Shown piece after piece: positions 1,343-63,590 of a stretch of 64,000 bases of DNA. A program made the translations under genes and the position numbers. The stretch's first letter is position 1. The number at the start of each line of letters is the position of its first letter. This DNA comes from Exiguobacterium mexicanum. GTDB lineage: Bacteria; Bacillota; Bacilli; Exiguobacteriales; Exiguobacteriaceae. The DNA lies in NCBI RefSeq assembly GCF_005960665.1, contig NZ_CP040676.1:1622501-1686500 (forward strand). The letters are read 5' to 3'. The notes under the pieces were generated by a model, which was not told the DNA's origin, did no database searches, and saw only the letters and a list, made by a program, of their open reading frames with translations.

Positions 1343-1366
1343 GAAAAAAATCCCAGCGGCATTCGC
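1343..1366 (+). terminator. Left half of the split rpmB/thiN bidirectional terminator
   Basis: The left remnant (A-run, ATCCCA, CGGC, loop ATTC) and the right remnant at 3200-3221 (GCCG, TGGGAT, T-run) join into one hairpin. Its arms are AAAAAAATCCCA-G-CGGC and GCCG-A-TGGGATTTTTTT around the loop ATTC. It would have terminated rpmB on plus and thiN on minus. IS1182 copy 1 interrupts it in the loop, so neither half can fold as the original. Confidence 0.8.
1358..1366. repeat. Target site duplication of IS1182 copy 1, left
   Basis: GGCATTCGC directly before the IS end is repeated at 3200-3208 directly after it. It covers the hairpin loop ATTC plus part of the stem. The exact length (8-10 bp) is ambiguous because flanking bases match the IS ends. 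Confidence 0.85.
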
Positions 1367-1396
1367 GAGGGCACTGAAAAACTTCAAATGATTTTG

Positions 1397-1440
1397 AACA
1401 GATGAGCGTCGTCCCGTTTGGGATGACGCTCATCTGTTTT
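1397..1440 (+). terminator. Left-end terminator carried by IS1182 copy 1
   Basis: A 19-bp stem (1397-1415 with 1420-1438), one G-U pair, loop GTTT, then a short T-run to 1440. It lies 30 bases inside the left end and would stop transcription arriving from rpmB before it enters the transposase. It also stands in for the rpmB terminator destroyed by the insertion. Confidence 0.75.
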
Positions 1441-1464
1441 CCTTGTCCTTCAGCCGCCCTGTCC

Positions 1465-1562
1465 GGCACGCCGCTTTCCTGGGGGCGGGCGTCGAGCCGC
1501 ATCGCGACGTCGTCGCTGCTGGGTCTCGCCTTGCCCGCTGATTCCCCGGGAGTCGGCGTGCC
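1465..1562 (-). repeat. Structured module C inside IS1182 copy 1
   Basis: A 98-nt module closed by GGCACGCC/GGCGTGCC (1465-1472 and 1555-1562). Read on the minus strand it has four nested helices: the closing stem; GGGG plus GCGGGC with GCCCGC plus CCCC; CGAG/CTCG; and GCGAC/GTCGC at the tip. Unpaired or junction motifs are GACTCC, GAGACCC, GATGCGGCTC and GGAAAGC. The same fold and motifs occur in the solo elements at 18996-19100 and 19172-19270. It contains no open frame that I would credit. Function unknown. Confidence 0.75.
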
Positions 1563-1597
1563 CTCGGGCGGCGCTGTACGCGCCCGGCATTCCGGAC

Positions 1598-1603
1598 TAT
1601 ACT
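1598..1603 (+). promoter_or_regulatory. Possible -10 box of the transposase promoter, copy 1
   Basis: TATACT lies 33 bases before the transposase ATG. The best upstream partner, CTGTAC at 1574-1579 with an 18-base spacer, is a poor -35. Weak promoters are usual for transposases. The same box is at 61968-61973 in copy 2. Confidence 0.35.
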
Positions 1604-1635
1604 GGCAGTAACCAACCCATTTGGAGGCGATCCCG

Positions 1636-3102
1636 ATGATGCCCGACCTGCCGAACATGCCGCCGAGCCCATACGCTGCCCTTTATGACCTGTTGATCCC
1701 GGCCGATGACGAGCTACGGCTCATCCACGACCTCGTCCCGTTCGATTTCATCACCAAGCTGCTCGAGGACACGTATTGCCATGACAACGGTCGGATGGCC
1801 GTCCATCCTGTCCGGATGTTCAAGTACCTGTTCCTGAAGGCGCACTCGAACCTGTCCGACGTCGACCTCGTCAGACGGGCGAAGACCGACCTCGCCTACA
1901 AATATTTTCTGGATCTGGCACCGGAAGATGACGTCATCAATCCTTCCTCGCTCACGAAGTTCCGTCGTCAGCGCATGGCCGACGACGAGCTGCTCGACAA
2001 GTTGATCGAGCACACGGTCGAGGTCGCGAAAGGGATGGGACTGCTCAAGTCACGAACATTGATTGTCGACGCGACCCATTCCCGTGCCCGGTATGGGCAA
2101 AAACCGATCGGGCAGGCGATCATCGAGGAAGCGAAGGGGCTCCGTCATGCATGTTACAAAGAGACCAACGACGCGAAGGGACGTTTTCCGGAGAAGGCAA
2201 ACGAGTCAGACATCGACCAGCTCCTCTCGTATGCGCTCGCCGTCGCCGAGACCGTCGAGGGCGAGATGCCTGAGCTGATGGCGCGCGAACACATCCGTGA
2301 CCGTGTGAACCGTGTCCGCGAGTTCGCGGAGGATGCGCACGTCGAACTTCAAGTCTCCAGGGATCCTGATGCCCGGACCGGGCACAAGAGTGCCGACTCA
2401 TCATTCTTCGGTTACAAACATCATCTCGCGATGACGGAGGAGGGCATCATCACGGCCGTCGTCGTCACATCCGGCGAAGCGTCGGACGGGCATCAGATGT
2501 CGAGGCTCGTCGAGAAGAGCCACCGCGCAGGGGCCGAGTTCGACCACATCGTGGGCGACGGGGCCTATTCGAGCCGGGACAACCTGATCTATGCCGCCTC
2601 GCAAGGGTGCAAGCTCGTCGCGCCATTGAACCCACAAGTCTACTCGCCGGCACCGAACCGCGTCGAGGGTTTCACCTACAACAAGGATGCCGAACGTTAC
2701 GTCTGCCCAGCCGGGCATATGGCCGTCCGCAAAGCCCGTGGCGGACGGAAGGACGTCGGAAAGAACCAAGTGGAGAGCCATTTCTTCAACATCGAGCTGT
2801 GCAAGCAATGTCCGTTACGAAAAGGCTGTTACAAGGACGGCGCCAAATCCAGATCCTATAGCGTGTCGTTGAAATCAAGGGAGCACAGCGATCAACTTGA
2901 CTATGGGCAGACCGATGACTTCAAGGACCATCGTCGGAAACGCTTCGCCGTCGAGGCGAAAAACAGTCAACTGAAGAACCCACAAGGTCTGGCGCGCAAC
3001 AAGACGCCAGACCTGAAAGGCATGACGTTACAGAGCGTGATGGCCATCGTCGCAGTCAATCTGAAGCGAATCATCACCCTCCGGAAAGAGAAAACGGATT
3101 AA
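1636..3102 (+). CDS. IS1182-family DDE transposase, copy 1
   Basis: 488 residues from the ATG at 1636, which has GGAGG eight bases upstream; an in-frame TTG at 1621 would overlap that ribosome site. The N-terminal ~100 residues are the helix-rich InsH/DUF772-type domain. Likely acidic residues are D145 (IVDATHSRA), D308 (VGDGAYSS) and E440 (AVEAKNSQLK). A Cys cluster (CPAGH ... CKQCPLRKGC, residues ~357-398) is typical of the DDE_Tnp_1_6 group. Length and domains are normal for IS1182, with no frameshift, so it should be functional. Confidence 0.95.
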   Translation: MMPDLPNMPPSPYAALYDLLIPADDELRLIHDLVPFDFITKLLEDTYCHDNGRMAVHPVRMFKYLFLKAHSNLSDVDLVRRAKTDLAYKYFLDLAPEDDVINPSSLTKFRRQRMADDELLDKLIEHTVEVAKGMGLLKSRTLIVDATHSRARYGQKPIGQAIIEEAKGLRHACYKETNDAKGRFPEKANESDIDQLLSYALAVAETVEGEMPELMAREHIRDRVNRVREFAEDAHVELQVSRDPDARTGHKSADSSFFGYKHHLAMTEEGIITAVVVTSGEASDGHQMSRLVEKSHRAGAEFDHIVGDGAYSSRDNLIYAASQGCKLVAPLNPQVYSPAPNRVEGFTYNKDAERYVCPAGHMAVRKARGGRKDVGKNQVESHFFNIELCKQCPLRKGCYKDGAKSRSYSVSLKSREHSDQLDYGQTDDFKDHRRKRFAVEAKNSQLKNPQGLARNKTPDLKGMTLQSVMAIVAVNLKRIITLRKEKTD

Positions 3103-3110
3103 AGGCAAGG

Positions 3111-3155
3111 AAAAAAGGCGATCGTCCCGACACAAGTCGGGCCAATCGCCTTTTT
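3111..3155. terminator. Bidirectional terminator at the right end of IS1182 copy 1
   Basis: A6 - GGCGAT - CCCGAC - ACAA - GTCGGG - ATCGCC - T5, with a 3x3 internal loop between the two stems. Because it has an A-run on one side and a T-run on the other, it can end the transposase transcript on plus and thiN transcription arriving on minus. Confidence 0.85.
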
Positions 3156-3199
3156 CACGTTCTCACGCTCGGATAGAGCGGGGGTTTTTCAGTGCCCTC

Positions 3200-3221
3200 G
3201 GCATTCGCCGATGGGATTTTT
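3200..3221 (-). terminator. Right half of the split rpmB/thiN terminator, with target duplication
   Basis: GGCATTCGC (3200-3208) is the right copy of the target duplication, followed by the CGATGGGAT arm and T-run of the old hairpin. It directly follows the thiN stop. Alone it cannot form the original stem. Confidence 0.75.
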
Positions 3222-4451: not shown

Positions 4452-4472
4452 ATCGAGTAGCAACGTGCATTT

Positions 4473-4559
4473 TCGCCACATCCCTACGTCCGTGTGAACG
4501 GAACAGGTTCAAAGGGTTAGCAAATGCCTCTCAGCCACAGAATGTGACACCCCTTGCGA
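4473..4559 (-). promoter_or_regulatory. TPP riboswitch aptamer (thi box)
   Basis: The minus strand shows the diagnostic thi-box pieces in order: GGGGTG, CTGAGAGG, ACCCTTTGAACCTG and GTAGGGA, closed by TCGC/GCGA. It is followed within 25 bases by an intrinsic terminator, so TPP binding should stop transcription of thiT-thiN. It lies between rpe and thiT, so transcripts running on from the upstream operon would pass through it too. Confidence 0.96.
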
Positions 4560-4582
4560 CAATATTTGTTGTTCTATCGACG

Positions 4583-18959: not shown

Positions 18960-18995
18960 TGACTTGCATAGAAATCGATGCTTACTATCGCCTTC

Positions 18996-19100
18996 GCCGG
19001 CACCCTCCGTTCCTGGGGCGATGCGGATGCCTCCGCAGTGCGTACTGCACTTTACGGGGTCATCCTTGCATCGCTCTCCCCTAGGAGTTCGGGTGCCGGC
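18996..19100 (-). repeat. Structured element A (solo relative of the IS1182 module)
   Basis: A 105-nt element closed by a perfect 10-bp stem GCCGGCACCC/GGGTGCCGGC. On minus it shows helix 2 (GGGG + GCGATGC with GCATCGC + CCC), helix 3 (GGATG/CATCC), helix 4 (AGTGC/GCACT) and the conserved unpaired pieces ACTCCT, GACCC, TGCGG and AGGAACG. Its helices differ in sequence from those of elements B and C yet stay paired. It contains no credible coding frame. The region 18960-18995 upstream shows nothing else. Confidence 0.7.
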
Positions 19101-19171
19101 CCGGACATCGGTTGGTCCTGCTTCTTTTTGGTTTTCCTCTAATACGTAAAGATGAAAGATTGCTTGTCCGT

Positions 19172-19270
19172 GGCGCCGGAGACTCCTACAGGATAGCAAT
19201 CCGACGGAGACCCAGCAGCGACGCTAGTCGCGATGCGGCTCCGGGATTGCCTGTGGAAAGCGAAGGCGCC
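19172..19270 (+). repeat. Structured element B (solo relative of the IS1182 module)
   Basis: A 99-nt element closed by GGCGCC/GGCGCC, in the opposite orientation to element A. Helix 2 pairs ACAGG + GCAATCC with GGATTGC + CCTGT; helix 3 CGGAG/CTCCG; helix 4 GCGAC/GTCGC with loop GCTA. It is very close to the IS1182 module in the apical half (GAGACCCAGCAGCGAC and GTCGCGATGCGGCTC are shared) but diverged in the outer helices. The 71 bases separating it from A are bounded by CGGACA/TGTCCG and hold no gene. Confidence 0.75.
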
Positions 19271-19290
19271 TAAAGGACGAGCTCTCAATC

Positions 19291-30574: not shown

Positions 30575-30606
30575 GTTCGTCTCCTCCTTTTGTGTGAAGG
30601 CAAAGA

Positions 30607-30643
30607 GAAAAGGCGTCTCTTCACCTACGTGAAGGGACGCCTT
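30607..30643 (-). terminator. PyrR-controlled terminator between pyrP and pyrB
   Basis: On minus, a 15-bp stem AAGGCGTCCCTTCAC/GTGAAGAGACGCCTT (one internal mismatch pair) with loop GTAG and TTTTC. An alternative hairpin ATTTGGGT/ACCCAAAT (30645-30667) lies between it and the PyrR loop and probably takes part in antitermination. Confidence 0.85.
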
Positions 30644-30680
30644 CATTTGGGTAGACTACACCCAAATAAACGAGCCTTCA

Positions 30681-30711
30681 CTTTGCCGACCTCACGGGAT
30701 CGAATTAAAAG
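30681..30711 (-). promoter_or_regulatory. PyrR binding loop between pyrP and pyrB
   Basis: On minus: CTTT lower stem, CGA-U-CC, loop CGTGA, GG-TCG, AAAG. It matches the PyrR consensus ATCCNGNGAGGT, including the bulged U. It begins in the last codons of pyrP. UMP-bound PyrR should stabilise it and favour the terminator downstream. Confidence 0.88.
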
Positions 30712-32006
30712 TTACTTGCTTGTCGTGTATCTTCAGTTGTTTCGGCAGCAGCTTCGTCGACCGCTTCTTCTTTTGGCAAGAAGGCGTTCAAGAGAATCCC
30801 GACGACTGTGGCGAGTGCCATCCCTTGAACCGGGAAGCTTCCAAGTTGGACCATGGCCCCACCAAGTCCGATGACGAGGATGACCGAGGCGATGATGAGA
30901 TTGCGTTTCTCAGCGAGGTCGACGTTGCTTTCGACCATCGTCCGCAGACCGTTCGAAGCGATGACTCCGAACAAGAGGATCGAGATGCCGCCTTTGACCG
31001 GGTTCGGGATCGTCGAGATGAACGCTTCGACGTGACCAAGGAAACCAAAGCTGATAGCCATGAGCGCTGCTCCGGCGATGACGTAGACACTGTACACTTT
31101 CGTGATGGCCATGACCCCGTTGTTCTCACCGTAAGTCGTACACGGTGGACCACCGAGCGCCGAGGCGACCGCTTTCCCGACCCCGTCGCCGAGGAGTGTC
31201 CGATGGAGACCTGGATCTTTCATCGTTTCGCGTCCGATGATTTTTGACGTGACCATTTGGTCGCCGATATGTTCCGTCATCGTGACGAGCGCGACCGGGA
31301 CGATGGCGAGCAGTGCTCCGACTTGCCACATCGGCATGTAGTCGACGAACACCATCGTGAAGTCAGGCAGTTGGAACAAGCTCGCTTGACCGAGCGCCGA
31401 GTAGTCGATGATGCCGAACAGGGCGGCGATGATGTAACCACCGATGATACCGAACAAGATCGGTACGGCGCCCCATACTCCTTTGAGCGTCGTCATAGCG
31501 AACATCGTGATGCCGAGCGTGAGAAGCGCGACGGTGATGAACGTTCCATTGTAGGCACCGTCTTTGTTCATCGACATGTCGATGGCGACCGGTGCGAGCG
31601 ATAAGCCGATGACCATGATGACCGGACCGACGACGACTGGCGGCAAGAGGCGCAGCAACCAGTTCACACCTGTATTATAGATGATGAGCGAGACCACACC
31701 GTAAACCGATCCGGCGATGATGCCACCGAACAAGGCGGCTTCGACACCCCATTGCTGGCTGACGGCGATGATCGGGGCGATGTAGGCGAAACTTGACCCG
31801 AGATAGGTCGGGACTTTGAAGCGGGTAATCGCTAGGAATGAGAGCGTGGCCACACCGGAAGCGACGAGGGCGACGGACGTGCTTAGGCCCGTCAAAATCG
31901 GGACTAAAATCGTCGCTCCGAACATGGCGAAGACGTGCTGCAGGCTGAAGAGCAGCCATTGCGGTAAGTGAGCGGGACGCTCGTGGATGTTGAGGATGGG
32001 TTTCAT
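30705..32006 (-). CDS. pyrP: Uracil permease PyrP
   Basis: 433 residues from the ATG at 32006 with AAGGAG eight bases upstream. About 12-14 hydrophobic segments of the NCS2/UraA type; FALF-like QHVFAMFGATILVPILTG at the N-terminus and GAALMAISFGFLGHVEAFISTIP later. It imports uracil with protons. It lies between pyrR and pyrB as in B. subtilis. A PyrR loop overlaps its ribosome site. Confidence 0.95.
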   Translation of the reverse strand: MKPILNIHERPAHLPQWLLFSLQHVFAMFGATILVPILTGLSTSVALVASGVATLSFLAITRFKVPTYLGSSFAYIAPIIAVSQQWGVEAALFGGIIAGSVYGVVSLIIYNTGVNWLLRLLPPVVVGPVIMVIGLSLAPVAIDMSMNKDGAYNGTFITVALLTLGITMFAMTTLKGVWGAVPILFGIIGGYIIAALFGIIDYSALGQASLFQLPDFTMVFVDYMPMWQVGALLAIVPVALVTMTEHIGDQMVTSKIIGRETMKDPGLHRTLLGDGVGKAVASALGGPPCTTYGENNGVMAITKVYSVYVIAGAALMAISFGFLGHVEAFISTIPNPVKGGISILLFGVIASNGLRTMVESNVDLAEKRNLIIASVILVIGLGGAMVQLGSFPVQGMALATVVGILLNAFLPKEEAVDEAAAETTEDTRQASNF

Positions 32007-61371: not shown

Positions 61372-61734
61372 ATGAAATTTGAGCAGTTCCACATCGAGGG
61401 AAAAGAGATCCGCTTCGGTTTGCTCGAGACGATCATGGATCATCATCATTTCATCCGTGAAGGCGCTTGGGACTATGAGCGTGCAACGTATGACATGAAG
61501 TACGAGAAACAATCGACAGGCGAGACGTTCTACCTTCGCTTACCGGTATATGCGATTGAAGGACAAATCGAGGACCGTCATGCGGTCGTTAAAATGTTGA
61601 CACCGATTCTCGGAAAACATTACTACCCGCACGGCGTCGAGTACGACGAAGAGTTCCCGGAAGAAATCGTCCGTGATTGCGAGCGTCGTCTTGCCGCACT
61701 CGCTGAGACACTCGAAGTAAAACCCCTTGCATAA
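61372..61734 (+). CDS. YugN-like family protein
   Basis: 120 residues from the second of two adjacent ATGs, six bases after GGAGG. An FGLLETIMDHHHFIREGAWDYERATYDMKY core matches the YugN-like (PF08868) family as I remember it. Function unknown. The stop codon lies in the loop of its own terminator, and IS1182 copy 2 begins two bases after it; the protein is intact. Confidence 0.82.
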   Translation: MKFEQFHIEGKEIRFGLLETIMDHHHFIREGAWDYERATYDMKYEKQSTGETFYLRLPVYAIEGQIEDRHAVVKMLTPILGKHYYPHGVEYDEEFPEEIVRDCERRLAALAETLEVKPLA

Positions 61735-61736
61735 GC
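61718..61736 (+). terminator. Left half of the split terminator of the yugN-like gene
   Basis: AAAACCCCTT-GC and loop ATAA; the right half GC-G-AAGGGGTTTTT is at 63576-63590. Rejoined they form a strong hairpin that overlaps the last codons and the stop. GCATAAGC at 61729-61736 is the left copy of the IS target duplication. Confidence 0.8.
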
Positions 61737-61766
61737 GAGGGCACTGAAAAACTTCAAATGATTTTG

Positions 61767-61810
61767 AACAGATGAGCGTCGTCCCGTTTGGGATGACGCT
61801 CATCTGTTTT
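61767..61810 (+). terminator. Left-end terminator of IS1182 copy 2
   Basis: The same 19-bp stem and T-run as in copy 1; here it faces transcription from the yugN-like gene. Confidence 0.75.
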
Positions 61811-61834
61811 CCTTGTCCTTCAGCCGCCCTGTCC

Positions 61835-61932
61835 GGCACGCCGCTTTCCTGGGGGCGGGCGTCGAGCCGCATCGCGACGTCGTCGCTGCTGGGTCTCGCC
61901 TTGCCCGCTGATTCCCCGGGAGTCGGCGTGCC
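61835..61932 (-). repeat. Structured module C inside IS1182 copy 2
   Basis: Identical to 1465-1562: closing stem GGCACGCC/GGCGTGCC and the same inner helices and motifs. Confidence 0.75.
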
Positions 61933-62005
61933 CTCGGGCGGCGCTGTACGCGCCCGGCATTCCGGACTATACTGGCAGTAACCAACCCATTTGGAGGCGA
62001 TCCCG

Positions 62006-63472
62006 ATGATGCCCGACCTGCCGAACATGCCGCCGAGCCCATACGCTGCCCTTTATGACCTGTTGATCCCGGCCGATGACGAGCTACGGCTCATCCACGA
62101 CCTCGTCCCGTTCGATTTCATCACCAAGCTGCTCGAGGACACGTATTGCCATGACAACGGTCGGATGGCCGTCCATCCTGTCCGGATGTTCAAGTACCTG
62201 TTCCTGAAGGCGCACTCGAACCTGTCCGACGTCGACCTCGTCAGACGGGCGAAGACCGACCTCGCCTACAAATATTTTCTGGATCTGGCACCGGAAGATG
62301 ACGTCATCAATCCTTCCTCGCTCACGAAGTTCCGTCGTCAGCGCATGGCCGACGACGAGCTGCTCGACAAGTTGATCGAGCACACGGTCGAGGTCGCGAA
62401 AGGGATGGGACTGCTCAAGTCACGAACATTGATTGTCGACGCGACCCATTCCCGTGCCCGGTATGGGCAAAAACCGATCGGGCAGGCGATCATCGAGGAA
62501 GCGAAGGGGCTCCGTCATGCATGTTACAAAGAGACCAACGACGCGAAGGGACGTTTTCCGGAGAAGGCAAACGAGTCAGACATCGACCAGCTCCTCTCGT
62601 ATGCGCTCGCCGTCGCCGAGACCGTCGAGGGCGAGATGCCTGAGCTGATGGCGCGCGAACACATCCGTGACCGTGTGAACCGTGTCCGCGAGTTCGCGGA
62701 GGATGCGCACGTCGAACTTCAAGTCTCCAGGGATCCTGATGCCCGGACCGGGCACAAGAGTGCCGACTCATCATTCTTCGGTTACAAACATCATCTCGCG
62801 ATGACGGAGGAGGGCATCATCACGGCCGTCGTCGTCACATCCGGCGAAGCGTCGGACGGGCATCAGATGTCGAGGCTCGTCGAGAAGAGCCACCGCGCAG
62901 GGGCCGAGTTCGACCACATCGTGGGCGACGGGGCCTATTCGAGCCGGGACAACCTGATCTATGCCGCCTCGCAAGGGTGCAAGCTCGTCGCGCCATTGAA
63001 CCCACAAGTCTACTCGCCGGCACCGAACCGCGTCGAGGGTTTCACCTACAACAAGGATGCCGAACGTTACGTCTGCCCAGCCGGGCATATGGCCGTCCGC
63101 AAAGCCCGTGGCGGACGGAAGGACGTCGGAAAGAACCAAGTGGAGAGCCATTTCTTCAACATCGAGCTGTGCAAGCAATGTCCGTTACGAAAAGGCTGTT
63201 ACAAGGACGGCGCCAAATCCAGATCCTATAGCGTGTCGTTGAAATCAAGGGAGCACAGCGATCAACTTGACTATGGGCAGACCGATGACTTCAAGGACCA
63301 TCGTCGGAAACGCTTCGCCGTCGAGGCGAAAAACAGTCAACTGAAGAACCCACAAGGTCTGGCGCGCAACAAGACGCCAGACCTGAAAGGCATGACGTTA
63401 CAGAGCGTGATGGCCATCGTCGCAGTCAATCTGAAGCGAATCATCACCCTCCGGAAAGAGAAAACGGATTAA
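62006..63472 (+). CDS. IS1182-family DDE transposase, copy 2
   Basis: 488 residues, identical in sequence to the copy 1 protein (likely acidic residues D145, D308, E440). GGAGG lies eight bases before the ATG at 62006. Intact, probably active. Confidence 0.95.
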   Translation: MMPDLPNMPPSPYAALYDLLIPADDELRLIHDLVPFDFITKLLEDTYCHDNGRMAVHPVRMFKYLFLKAHSNLSDVDLVRRAKTDLAYKYFLDLAPEDDVINPSSLTKFRRQRMADDELLDKLIEHTVEVAKGMGLLKSRTLIVDATHSRARYGQKPIGQAIIEEAKGLRHACYKETNDAKGRFPEKANESDIDQLLSYALAVAETVEGEMPELMAREHIRDRVNRVREFAEDAHVELQVSRDPDARTGHKSADSSFFGYKHHLAMTEEGIITAVVVTSGEASDGHQMSRLVEKSHRAGAEFDHIVGDGAYSSRDNLIYAASQGCKLVAPLNPQVYSPAPNRVEGFTYNKDAERYVCPAGHMAVRKARGGRKDVGKNQVESHFFNIELCKQCPLRKGCYKDGAKSRSYSVSLKSREHSDQLDYGQTDDFKDHRRKRFAVEAKNSQLKNPQGLARNKTPDLKGMTLQSVMAIVAVNLKRIITLRKEKTD

Positions 63473-63480
63473 AGGCAAGG

Positions 63481-63525
63481 AAAAAAGGCGATCGTCCCGA
63501 CACAAGTCGGGCCAATCGCCTTTTT
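63481..63525. terminator. Bidirectional terminator at the right end of IS1182 copy 2
   Basis: The same A6 - two-part stem - T5 structure as at 3111-3155. It shields the flanking DNA from transposase transcription and the transposase from the IS3 element next door. Confidence 0.85.
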
Positions 63526-63569
63526 CACGTTCTCACGCTCGGATAGAGCGGGGGTTTTTCAGTGCCCTC

Positions 63570-63590
63570 GCATAAGCGAAGGGGTTTTTC
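63570..63590 (+). terminator. Right half of the yugN-like terminator with target duplication
   Basis: GCATAAGC (63570-63577) is the right duplication; GAAGGGGTTTTT is the 3' arm of the old hairpin. About 40 bases of host DNA follow before the IS3 element. Confidence 0.75.

What the first reader, a model, noticed from the sequence alone, without database searches (positions are those of the whole stretch)
1465..1562. IS1182 carries a structured module antisense to and upstream of its transposase
Between its left terminator and transposase the element holds a 98-nt fold (repeated at 61835-61932). Its apical half is nearly identical to solo element B. A DDE element normally has little non-coding DNA; a conserved fold here may be a transposase binding site, an RNA that regulates transposase synthesis, or a passenger that the element spreads. 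The solo copies lack the IS inverted repeat GAGGGCACTGAAAAAC, so they are not simple internal deletions of this IS.
Basis: partly seen in the sequence, partly recalled or inferred. Interest (0 to 1): 0.75.

Follow-up and report, generated by a model that had tools for sequence, protein, structure and literature searches.

The report
Captured hairpin repeat inside an IS
A jumping gene in this Exiguobacterium genome carries a strongly folded DNA hairpin that belongs to a large, apparently unnamed family of repeats scattered through the Bacilli, and related jumping genes seem to have picked up the same hairpin several times, in the cases seen always at the same place and pointing the same way.

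Summary
A 98-nt imperfect hairpin (1465-1562, repeated at 61835-61932; z -4.7 as RNA on +) lies between the left end and the transposase of two IS1182-type elements. It is not specific to this IS. It belongs to a dispersed hairpin family with strong covariation (95.6% of cells paired, 15 of 22 pairs with double changes), matched in 36 of 38 genomes of the window's order, in 100 of 398 sampled Bacilli genomes and at up to 139 places in one genome. Rfam has no match at gathering score. Solos A and B belong to the same family. Most IS1182 relatives examined lack it, including an 81%-identical one in a neighbouring genus that still transposed; so it is not needed for transposition. Yet it occurs in about seven IS lineages, in each upstream of the transposase and in sense. 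In Exiguobacterium it varies less than its flanks (10/97 against 33/104 columns, p=2.5e-4). I read it as a captured hairpin kept as a cis-element of the left end. These elements insert into transcription terminators, so a barrier to incoming transcription is my leading, unproven mechanism. Pair types give no clear support for a one-strand RNA.

The parts
1367..3199 (+). IS1182-type insertion sequence, copy 1
   Evidence: perfect inverted repeats at 1367-1382 (+) and 3184-3199 (-); Pfam DDE_Tnp_1_6, DDE_Tnp_1, DUF772
61737..63569 (+). IS copy 2, same transposase
   Evidence: inverted repeats; 100% identical transposase
1358..1366 (.). target duplication GGCATTCGC, left; mate at 3200-3208; the empty site is the loop of a terminator hairpin
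   Evidence: the script reports it one base to the left
61729..61736 (.). target duplication GCATAAGC of copy 2, left; mate at 63570-63577; also in a terminator hairpin
1397..1438 (+). left-end hairpin (terminator-like, short T run)
   Evidence: not called by the standard scan
1465..1562 (+). the 98-nt structured module; covariance-model core 1472-1554
1453..1571 (+). module with its outer GC-rich stem extension
   Evidence: fold of 1453-1585
61835..61932 (+). second copy of the module; core 61842-61924
1636..3102 (+). transposase gene, 488 aa; TATACT at 1598-1603 lies after the module
   Evidence: promoter not confirmed by scan
62006..63472 (+). transposase gene of copy 2
18996..19100 (+). 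solo element A (core 19007-19089), same family
19172..19270 (-). solo element B (core 19181-19262), same family, inverted with respect to A

Best explanation
Shown: the module is one copy of a family of dispersed imperfect hairpin repeats of Bacilli. IS1182-family elements of about seven lineages carry a copy, in each case seen 5' of the transposase and in the same orientation; in Exiguobacterium the IS multiplies it and it is more conserved than its surroundings. Inferred: these ISs insert into intrinsic terminators just behind host genes, so transcription that leaks through the terminator would run into the element. The module, in most lineages directly behind the IS's own left hairpin, most likely acts as a second barrier that slows or cuts incoming transcription, or disables its transcript, and so keeps transposase synthesis low. 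Solo copies behind gene terminators may do the same for host genes. Identity of the family: about 0.95 likely. A selected function for the IS: about 0.6. The barrier mechanism itself: about 0.35.
For: Family and covariation: (covariation score 0.480 against 0.166 shuffled and at most 0.112 slid). Window IS, G007-type IS and G005-type IS all carry it near the left end. Elsewhere: neighbouring genus g2 (L204, L205, L223), G235 (L207), G216 (L171), G358 (L237), G240 (L250) and Peribacillus sp. R9-11 and P. muralis plasmids. The label needs at least 4 changes on the ISEfa7-like tree and 3 on the window-type tree. Constraint: module 10/97 variable columns against 33/104 in flanks among 7 copies, p=2.5e-4; in the 4 full copies module 4/97 against third codon positions 242/487. 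Terminator targeting: both window copies and 4 of the 7 G005 window-type copies searched have an 8-9 bp duplication in a hairpin (L057 only weakly; ends not found for the other 3); 5 of 5 G007-type and 5 of 5 G005-type copies duplicate 19-29 bp spanning a hairpin. Of 114 distinct modules, 33 have a terminator-like hairpin 60 nt or less upstream in sense and 5 the mirror arrangement; among 70 unpaired modules 16 against 5.
Against: No transcript or activity data. The module has no U tract, so it is not a terminator by itself. Non-Watson-Crick cells (G-T 62, A-C 33; by clusters 38 and 26) give no clear strand asymmetry, which an RNA function should show. In L237 the module lies before, not after, the left hairpin (by eye). 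Most relatives do without it (18 of 28 and 19 of 25 rows). The 33:5 count is inflated because inverted pairs always turn their upstream side outwards; unpaired and without IS-borne copies it is 11:5, and at 220 nt there is no bias (48:42). With copy L051 added to the 4 full copies the constraint test weakens (p=0.025), for the pair L056/L051 the module is the more variable part, and in the G007-type IS the difference is not significant (6/105 against 16/135, p=0.12). No promoter was found in 1300-1700.
Confidence: 0.4

Rival explanations
1. Selfish hairpin: the module is a non-autonomous mobile repeat of its own that inserts at terminators, and the left hairpin of IS1182 elements is one more landing site. 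The IS spreads it as a hitch-hiker, and its conservation reflects the hairpin's own needs.
For: Many solos without a transposase beside them: in 14 genomes chosen for matches, 3 to 139 places each (contexts of 20 regions read). In Peribacillus the unit in the IS is flanked by two copies of the terminator arm (TTTGYCTACAGT and a T run), while the related Cytobacillus firmus IS (84.7% identical transposase) has one copy and no module (by eye). About 260-345-bp repeats of Priestia megaterium plasmids carry the module between imperfect terminal repeats.
Against: Sense and 5' in about seven lineages (orientation alone p=0.016 if the lineages are independent). No mobiliser found: PF01797 (Y1/RAYT-like) genes are not flanked by modules (1 of 23 loci; 0 of 16 Exiguobacterium loci). 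Four Exiguobacterium solo loci are syntenic between species, so old.
Confidence: 0.3
2. DNA-level binding site, BIME-like: the hairpin pairs between convergent genes, and the IS copies, bind a host protein such as gyrase or a nucleoid protein.
For: Changes are mostly Watson-Crick to Watson-Crick with few G-T steps and no clear strand asymmetry. Solos form inverted pairs between terminator-like hairpins and persist at the same loci with the pair in either orientation. REP/BIME binding of gyrase and IHF is known from titles in the reference list of PMC2267715 and from recall.
Against: No binding data. Uniform orientation inside ISs is not predicted.
Confidence: 0.2
3. Regulatory RNA, sense or antisense, that controls transposase synthesis.
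For: Very stable fold on both strands; upstream position and one orientation.
Against: A likely -10 (TATACT) lies after the module; no promoter found by scan; no clear strand asymmetry of pairs; no Rfam match at gathering score, and the sub-threshold matches lie far under their families' cut-offs.
Confidence: 0.1
4. Transposase binding site or transposition enhancer.
For: Lies in the left end; short elements of G016, G002 and G013 carry an inverted module near each end.
Against: The module-free copy L043 has a target duplication and module-free relatives have intact-looking ends; the same fold serves ISs with unrelated inverted repeats.
Confidence: 0.06

Closest known systems
REP / BIME elements of enterobacteria and pseudomonads
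   Same: dispersed imperfect palindromes, often in inverted pairs, up to 139 places per genome
   Different: longer (about 80-nt core), in Bacilli, and not flanking PF01797 (RAYT-like) genes in the loci tested
Bhal-1, a 74-bp intergenic stem-loop family of Bacillus halodurans, 36 copies (PMC2267715 Table 3; passages seen)
   Same: size, structure, host group and copy number fit
   Different: its sequence is not in the passages seen, so identity is untested; no link to an IS stated in the passages seen
bcr1 repeat of the Bacillus cereus group (listed in PMC2267715; title of the original paper seen)
   Same: folded dispersed repeat of Bacilli with mobile-element character
   Different: 147-167 bp in that table; not compared by sequence here
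IS1182 family, ISEfa7-like subgroup (database annotation)
   Same: the host elements: DDE transposase, inverted repeats, target duplication
   Different: the module is an extra that most members examined lack
IS110 bridge RNA / IS605 omega RNA (recalled)
   Same: structured non-coding part in an IS
   Different: the module is not tied to one transposase, is absent from most relatives and shows no clear RNA signature

Membership tests
IS1182 family (the host element) | DDE transposase with DUF772 and DDE_Tnp_1_6 domains | tested here: met
   relatives annotated 'IS1182 family transposase'
IS1182 family (the host element) | terminal inverted repeats and target duplication | tested here: met
IS1182 family (the host element) | structured module in the 5' non-coding region | tested here: not met
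   not a family feature: 18 of 28 and 19 of 25 rows lack it (three module rows, L171, L259 and L260, were found through the module, so the share with it is overstated)
dispersed hairpin family found here | conserved fold with compensatory changes | tested here: met
   one of five measures, the number of further pair types, is below the shuffles (26 against 32.8)
dispersed hairpin family found here | many copies in many genera | tested here: met
REP / BIME with RAYT | repeats flank a RAYT (Y1 transposase) gene | tested here: not met
   1 of 23 loci; 0 of 16 loci
REP / BIME with RAYT | imperfect palindromes in inverted pairs | tested here: met
MITE of IS1182 elements | terminal repeats of the IS and target duplication | tested here: inconclusive
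   short elements of G016, G002 and G013: IS-like ends, duplication found by script in 6 of 10, not in L114, L130, L131, ends not found in L119, a transposase remnant in 10 of 10; not met for window solos A and B
Rfam families | match at gathering score | tested here: not met
   for the window; sub-threshold matches only
Bhal-1 of B. halodurans | sequence similarity | not testable with these tools

The most novel reading that the evidence does not exclude
A Bacilli-wide class of terminator-associated DNA hairpins, BIME-like but without RAYT, that terminator-targeting IS1182-family elements have captured again and again as a standard left-end part, in a fixed place and orientation, to shield the transposase gene from host transcription; in some other IS1182 lineages unrelated large folded inserts may fill the same slot.
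Probability: 0.3. Interest if true: 0.75.

Novelty: new variant of a known kind. Interest (0 to 1): 0.56.

Why it matters
It ties an apparently unnamed, abundant repeat family of Bacilli to mobile elements that repeatedly recruit it and that live in terminators. If the barrier role is right, it shows how an IS that settles just behind active genes protects itself. It also gives a covariance model with which dozens of genera can be annotated, and a set of genomes in which the function of a BIME-like repeat outside proteobacteria can be tested.

Tried and rejected
Rfam: no hit at the gathering score except TPP and PyrR elsewhere in the window; sub-threshold hits are implausible. RAYT as mobiliser: PF01797 matches exist in 9 of 19 Exiguobacterium genomes and 11 of 18 genomes that carry modules, but modules do not flank them. 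Orientation relative to terminators as a general law for solos: at 220 nt there is no bias (48 against 42 of 114); at 60 nt or less the bias is partly a consequence of pairing (33:5 in all, 16:5 unpaired, 11:5 unpaired without IS-borne copies, of which L015 and L016 have a degenerate partner by eye). Simple in-situ inversion of the A-B pair: at locus 1 the two orientations have different spacers (by eye) and B copies (74-75 of 83 alike), and the flank tree needs 2 changes, so exchange of alleles or separate insertion is as likely. Empty sites of Priestia megaterium and Bacillus badius plasmid solos: no matching empty plasmid. Ancestral module with many losses cannot be excluded for part of the tree; L200 (99% identical to the G007-type transposase) looks like a deletion of the module (by eye). 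Literature: searches listed no paper that I could recognise as describing this repeat or terminator targeting by IS1182; only open-licence PMC text was searched and, apart from passages of two papers, only listings were seen.

Full report
What is there. Two IS copies, 1367-3199 and 61737-63569, have perfect 16-bp inverted repeats, the same 488-aa DDE transposase and short target duplications, GGCATTCGC and GCATAAGC, which lie in terminator hairpins. Between a left-end hairpin (1397-1438) and the transposase lies the module: 98 nt, -64.4 kcal/mol, no shuffle of 200 as stable.

The module is a repeat family. Alignment of IS modules with solos A and B shows one skeleton: an outer stem, CTTTCC facing GGAGTC, a stem with a bulge on its 3' side, a GAGCC/GGGTC stem and a variable tip. 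A first covariance model (R1, 7 sequences) matched 36 of 38 genomes of the order at E up to 0.01. A second (R2, from 67 matches) has 95.6% of cells paired, 15 of 22 pairs with changes on both sides and a covariation score of 0.480 against 0.166 in shuffles and at most 0.112 when slid; the number of further pair types is lower than in shuffles, 26 against 32.8 (repeated). This alignment was fitted to the R1 model and leans towards it. In 14 of these, chosen because they had matches, counts run from 3 to 139. A blastn search of plasmids names hosts: Bacillus badius, B. subtilis, Priestia, Peribacillus, Niallia, Cytobacillus, Paenibacillus urinalis (16 records).

Which ISs carry it. Of this IS, 12 Exiguobacterium g1 copies with a readable 5' end were seen (2 in the window, 7 in G005, 1 in strain SL-9, 2 in E. 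alkaliphilum, one of them lacking the left hairpin) and all 12 have the module; 3' fragments (e.g. L036, L045, L048) and a decayed copy at G000:C4:549997-550777 were not counted. Two copies in G020 of the neighbouring genus g2 (81% identical transposase) lack it; so do five more distant relatives with a clear 5' end: Metabacillus, Peptoclostridium, Priestia megaterium, Enterococcus avium and a Bacteroidales MAG (by eye; the first four also scanned). Two other ISs of Exiguobacterium carry it in the same place: a 1.7-kb IS in G007 and a 1.76-kb IS in G005. About 560-bp elements of G016, G002 and G013 carry one near each end, inverted, and a short transposase remnant, 10 of 10. Scanning 65 loci (IS1182-type relatives, plasmid copies and controls) with R2 found further sense-oriented modules upstream of the transposase in g2 (L204, L205, L223), G235 (L207), G216 (L171), G358 (L237) and G240 (L250), and a very weak one in L241 (E 0.74, not counted). 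L230 and L210 matches lie outside the IS and inverted; L199 has two solos nearby; a second weak match at L207 (E 0.23) lies outside the IS. Peribacillus sp. R9-11 (two plasmids) and P. muralis have it too; the loci of Cytobacillus firmus, Sutcliffiella, Listeria, E. faecium and the record named Arthrobacter citreus gave no match at E up to 0.1. L228, L232 and L241-L243 have other large folded-looking inserts in the same slot (judged by eye).

How often it was acquired. On a tree of 28 ISEfa7-like transposases (10 with module) the label needs at least 4 changes; on a tree of 25 window-type transposases (6 with module) at least 3 (loci are the best matches that the tools returned, not all). Three of the 10 rows (L171, L259, L260) were found through the module, so the share is overstated. 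The G005-type IS is in neither tree. I count about seven lineages: window-type Exiguobacterium, L237, L250; ISEfa7-like of the Exiguobacterium family, L207+L171, Peribacillus; and the G005-type. All are 5' and sense; one orientation in 7 of 7 has p=0.016, and one of four side-orientation states 2.4e-4, if the lineages are independent. One gain and several losses cannot be excluded for part of this, but L237 has the module before its left hairpin, and in Peribacillus the unit is flanked by two copies of the terminator arm where the C. firmus IS has one (by eye), which points to insertion.

Is it a passenger? Among 7 window-type copies the module has 10 variable columns of 97 and its non-coding flanks 33 of 104 (p=2.5e-4; columns with a gap left out, which removes most of the left flank because of L038). 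In the 4 full copies it is 4 of 97 against 28 of 165 in flanks (p=0.0016) and 242 of 487 third codon positions; with L051 added, 7 of 97 against 29 of 165 (p=0.025). The pair L056/L051 goes the other way: 6 differences in 98 against 7 in 166. In the G007-type IS the module varies at 6 of 105 columns and the two flanks at 16 of 135 (p=0.12). Overall this favours constraint over neutral hitch-hiking. By coordinates and identical scores at least 20 of 30 R1 matches in G005 lie in ISs (8 window-type including a fragment, 10 of one identical score of which 5 were aligned as the G005-type IS, 2 ISEfa7-like; not all 30 are listed), so the IS is the main vehicle there. G382, with 136 matches, is not among the genomes with a transposase match of either type at 1e-60 (its own row is not shown), so solos seem to multiply without these ISs.

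RNA or DNA? The transposase start follows TATACT at 1598-1603, after the module, so the regular transcript would not hold the module; the scan did not confirm a promoter. If one strand acted as RNA, G-T pairs should far exceed A-C (expectation from recall). On 114 distinct rows there are 62 G-T and 33 A-C cells, and 38 and 26 by cluster, the first pair (T-G in 112 of 114) left out; 28 of the 62 come from two pairs (9-101 and 15-89) that look misaligned. This gives no clear support to a one-strand RNA.

Solos. At four Exiguobacterium loci the A-B pair, or what is left of it, lies in a spacer with a terminator-like hairpin on at least one side, at locus 1 on both sides and facing each other, and the same loci are found in other species (hairpins by eye). 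At the window's locus the order is A-B in G000 and G007, A alone in G005, and B-A in G008, G011, G014 and G015; the flank tree needs two changes. The four B-A copies share an identical B (83/83) while their flanks differ by up to 10%, so exchange between strains is likely. At the other three loci the pair, or its A, lies in both orientations between species too.

Mechanism. Shown: family, distribution, position, orientation, constraint, terminator targeting. Inferred: that the module dampens transcription entering from the invaded host gene. Selfish hairpin, DNA-binding site and regulatory RNA remain open, in that order.

Known or new. Nine paper searches listed no recognisable description of this repeat; a 2008 survey lists Bhal-1 of B. 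halodurans (74 bp, 36 copies), which may be it, but only passages were read and no sequence was available (PMC2267715). PMC1590033 was read as passages only.

Noticed in passing
window 18975-19275 and loci L013-L016: The A-B hairpin pairs are old and syntenic, but the pair, or its A element, lies in either orientation between the same flanking genes in different Exiguobacterium species.
   Followed up: partly
L120-L124, L125-L128, L132: ISEfa7-like and G005-type IS1182 elements duplicate a whole terminator hairpin (19-29 bp, one mismatch allowed) on insertion, 10 of 10 copies examined; window-type copies duplicate 8-9 bp, mostly in the loop.
   Followed up: yes
L125 (G005 1.76-kb IS): The transposase reads in two overlapping frames around an A-rich stretch; possibly programmed frameshifting, or decay (one copy translated).
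   Followed up: no
L228, L232, L241, L242, L243: Other IS1182 relatives have unrelated large folded-looking inserts of roughly 150-250 nt in the same 5' slot (by eye).
   Followed up: no
L257, L258, L263, L264, L265: Priestia megaterium plasmid repeats of about 260-345 bp with imperfect end repeats (AAAGAGGCTG..ACA, by eye) hold a hairpin plus the module.
   Followed up: partly
L270-L276, L280-L283, L292: RAYT-like PF01797 proteins, one or two per genome, in open frames of 157-344 aa, in several Bacilli genomes; none of these 12 loci holds a module.
   Followed up: partly
L200 (G000 contig C3): A copy 99% identical in protein to the G007 IS lacks most of the module, apparently by deletion.
   Followed up: partly
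window 4464-4564 and 30606-30716, minus strand: TPP riboswitch and PyrR binding site, ordinary Rfam hits.
   Followed up: no
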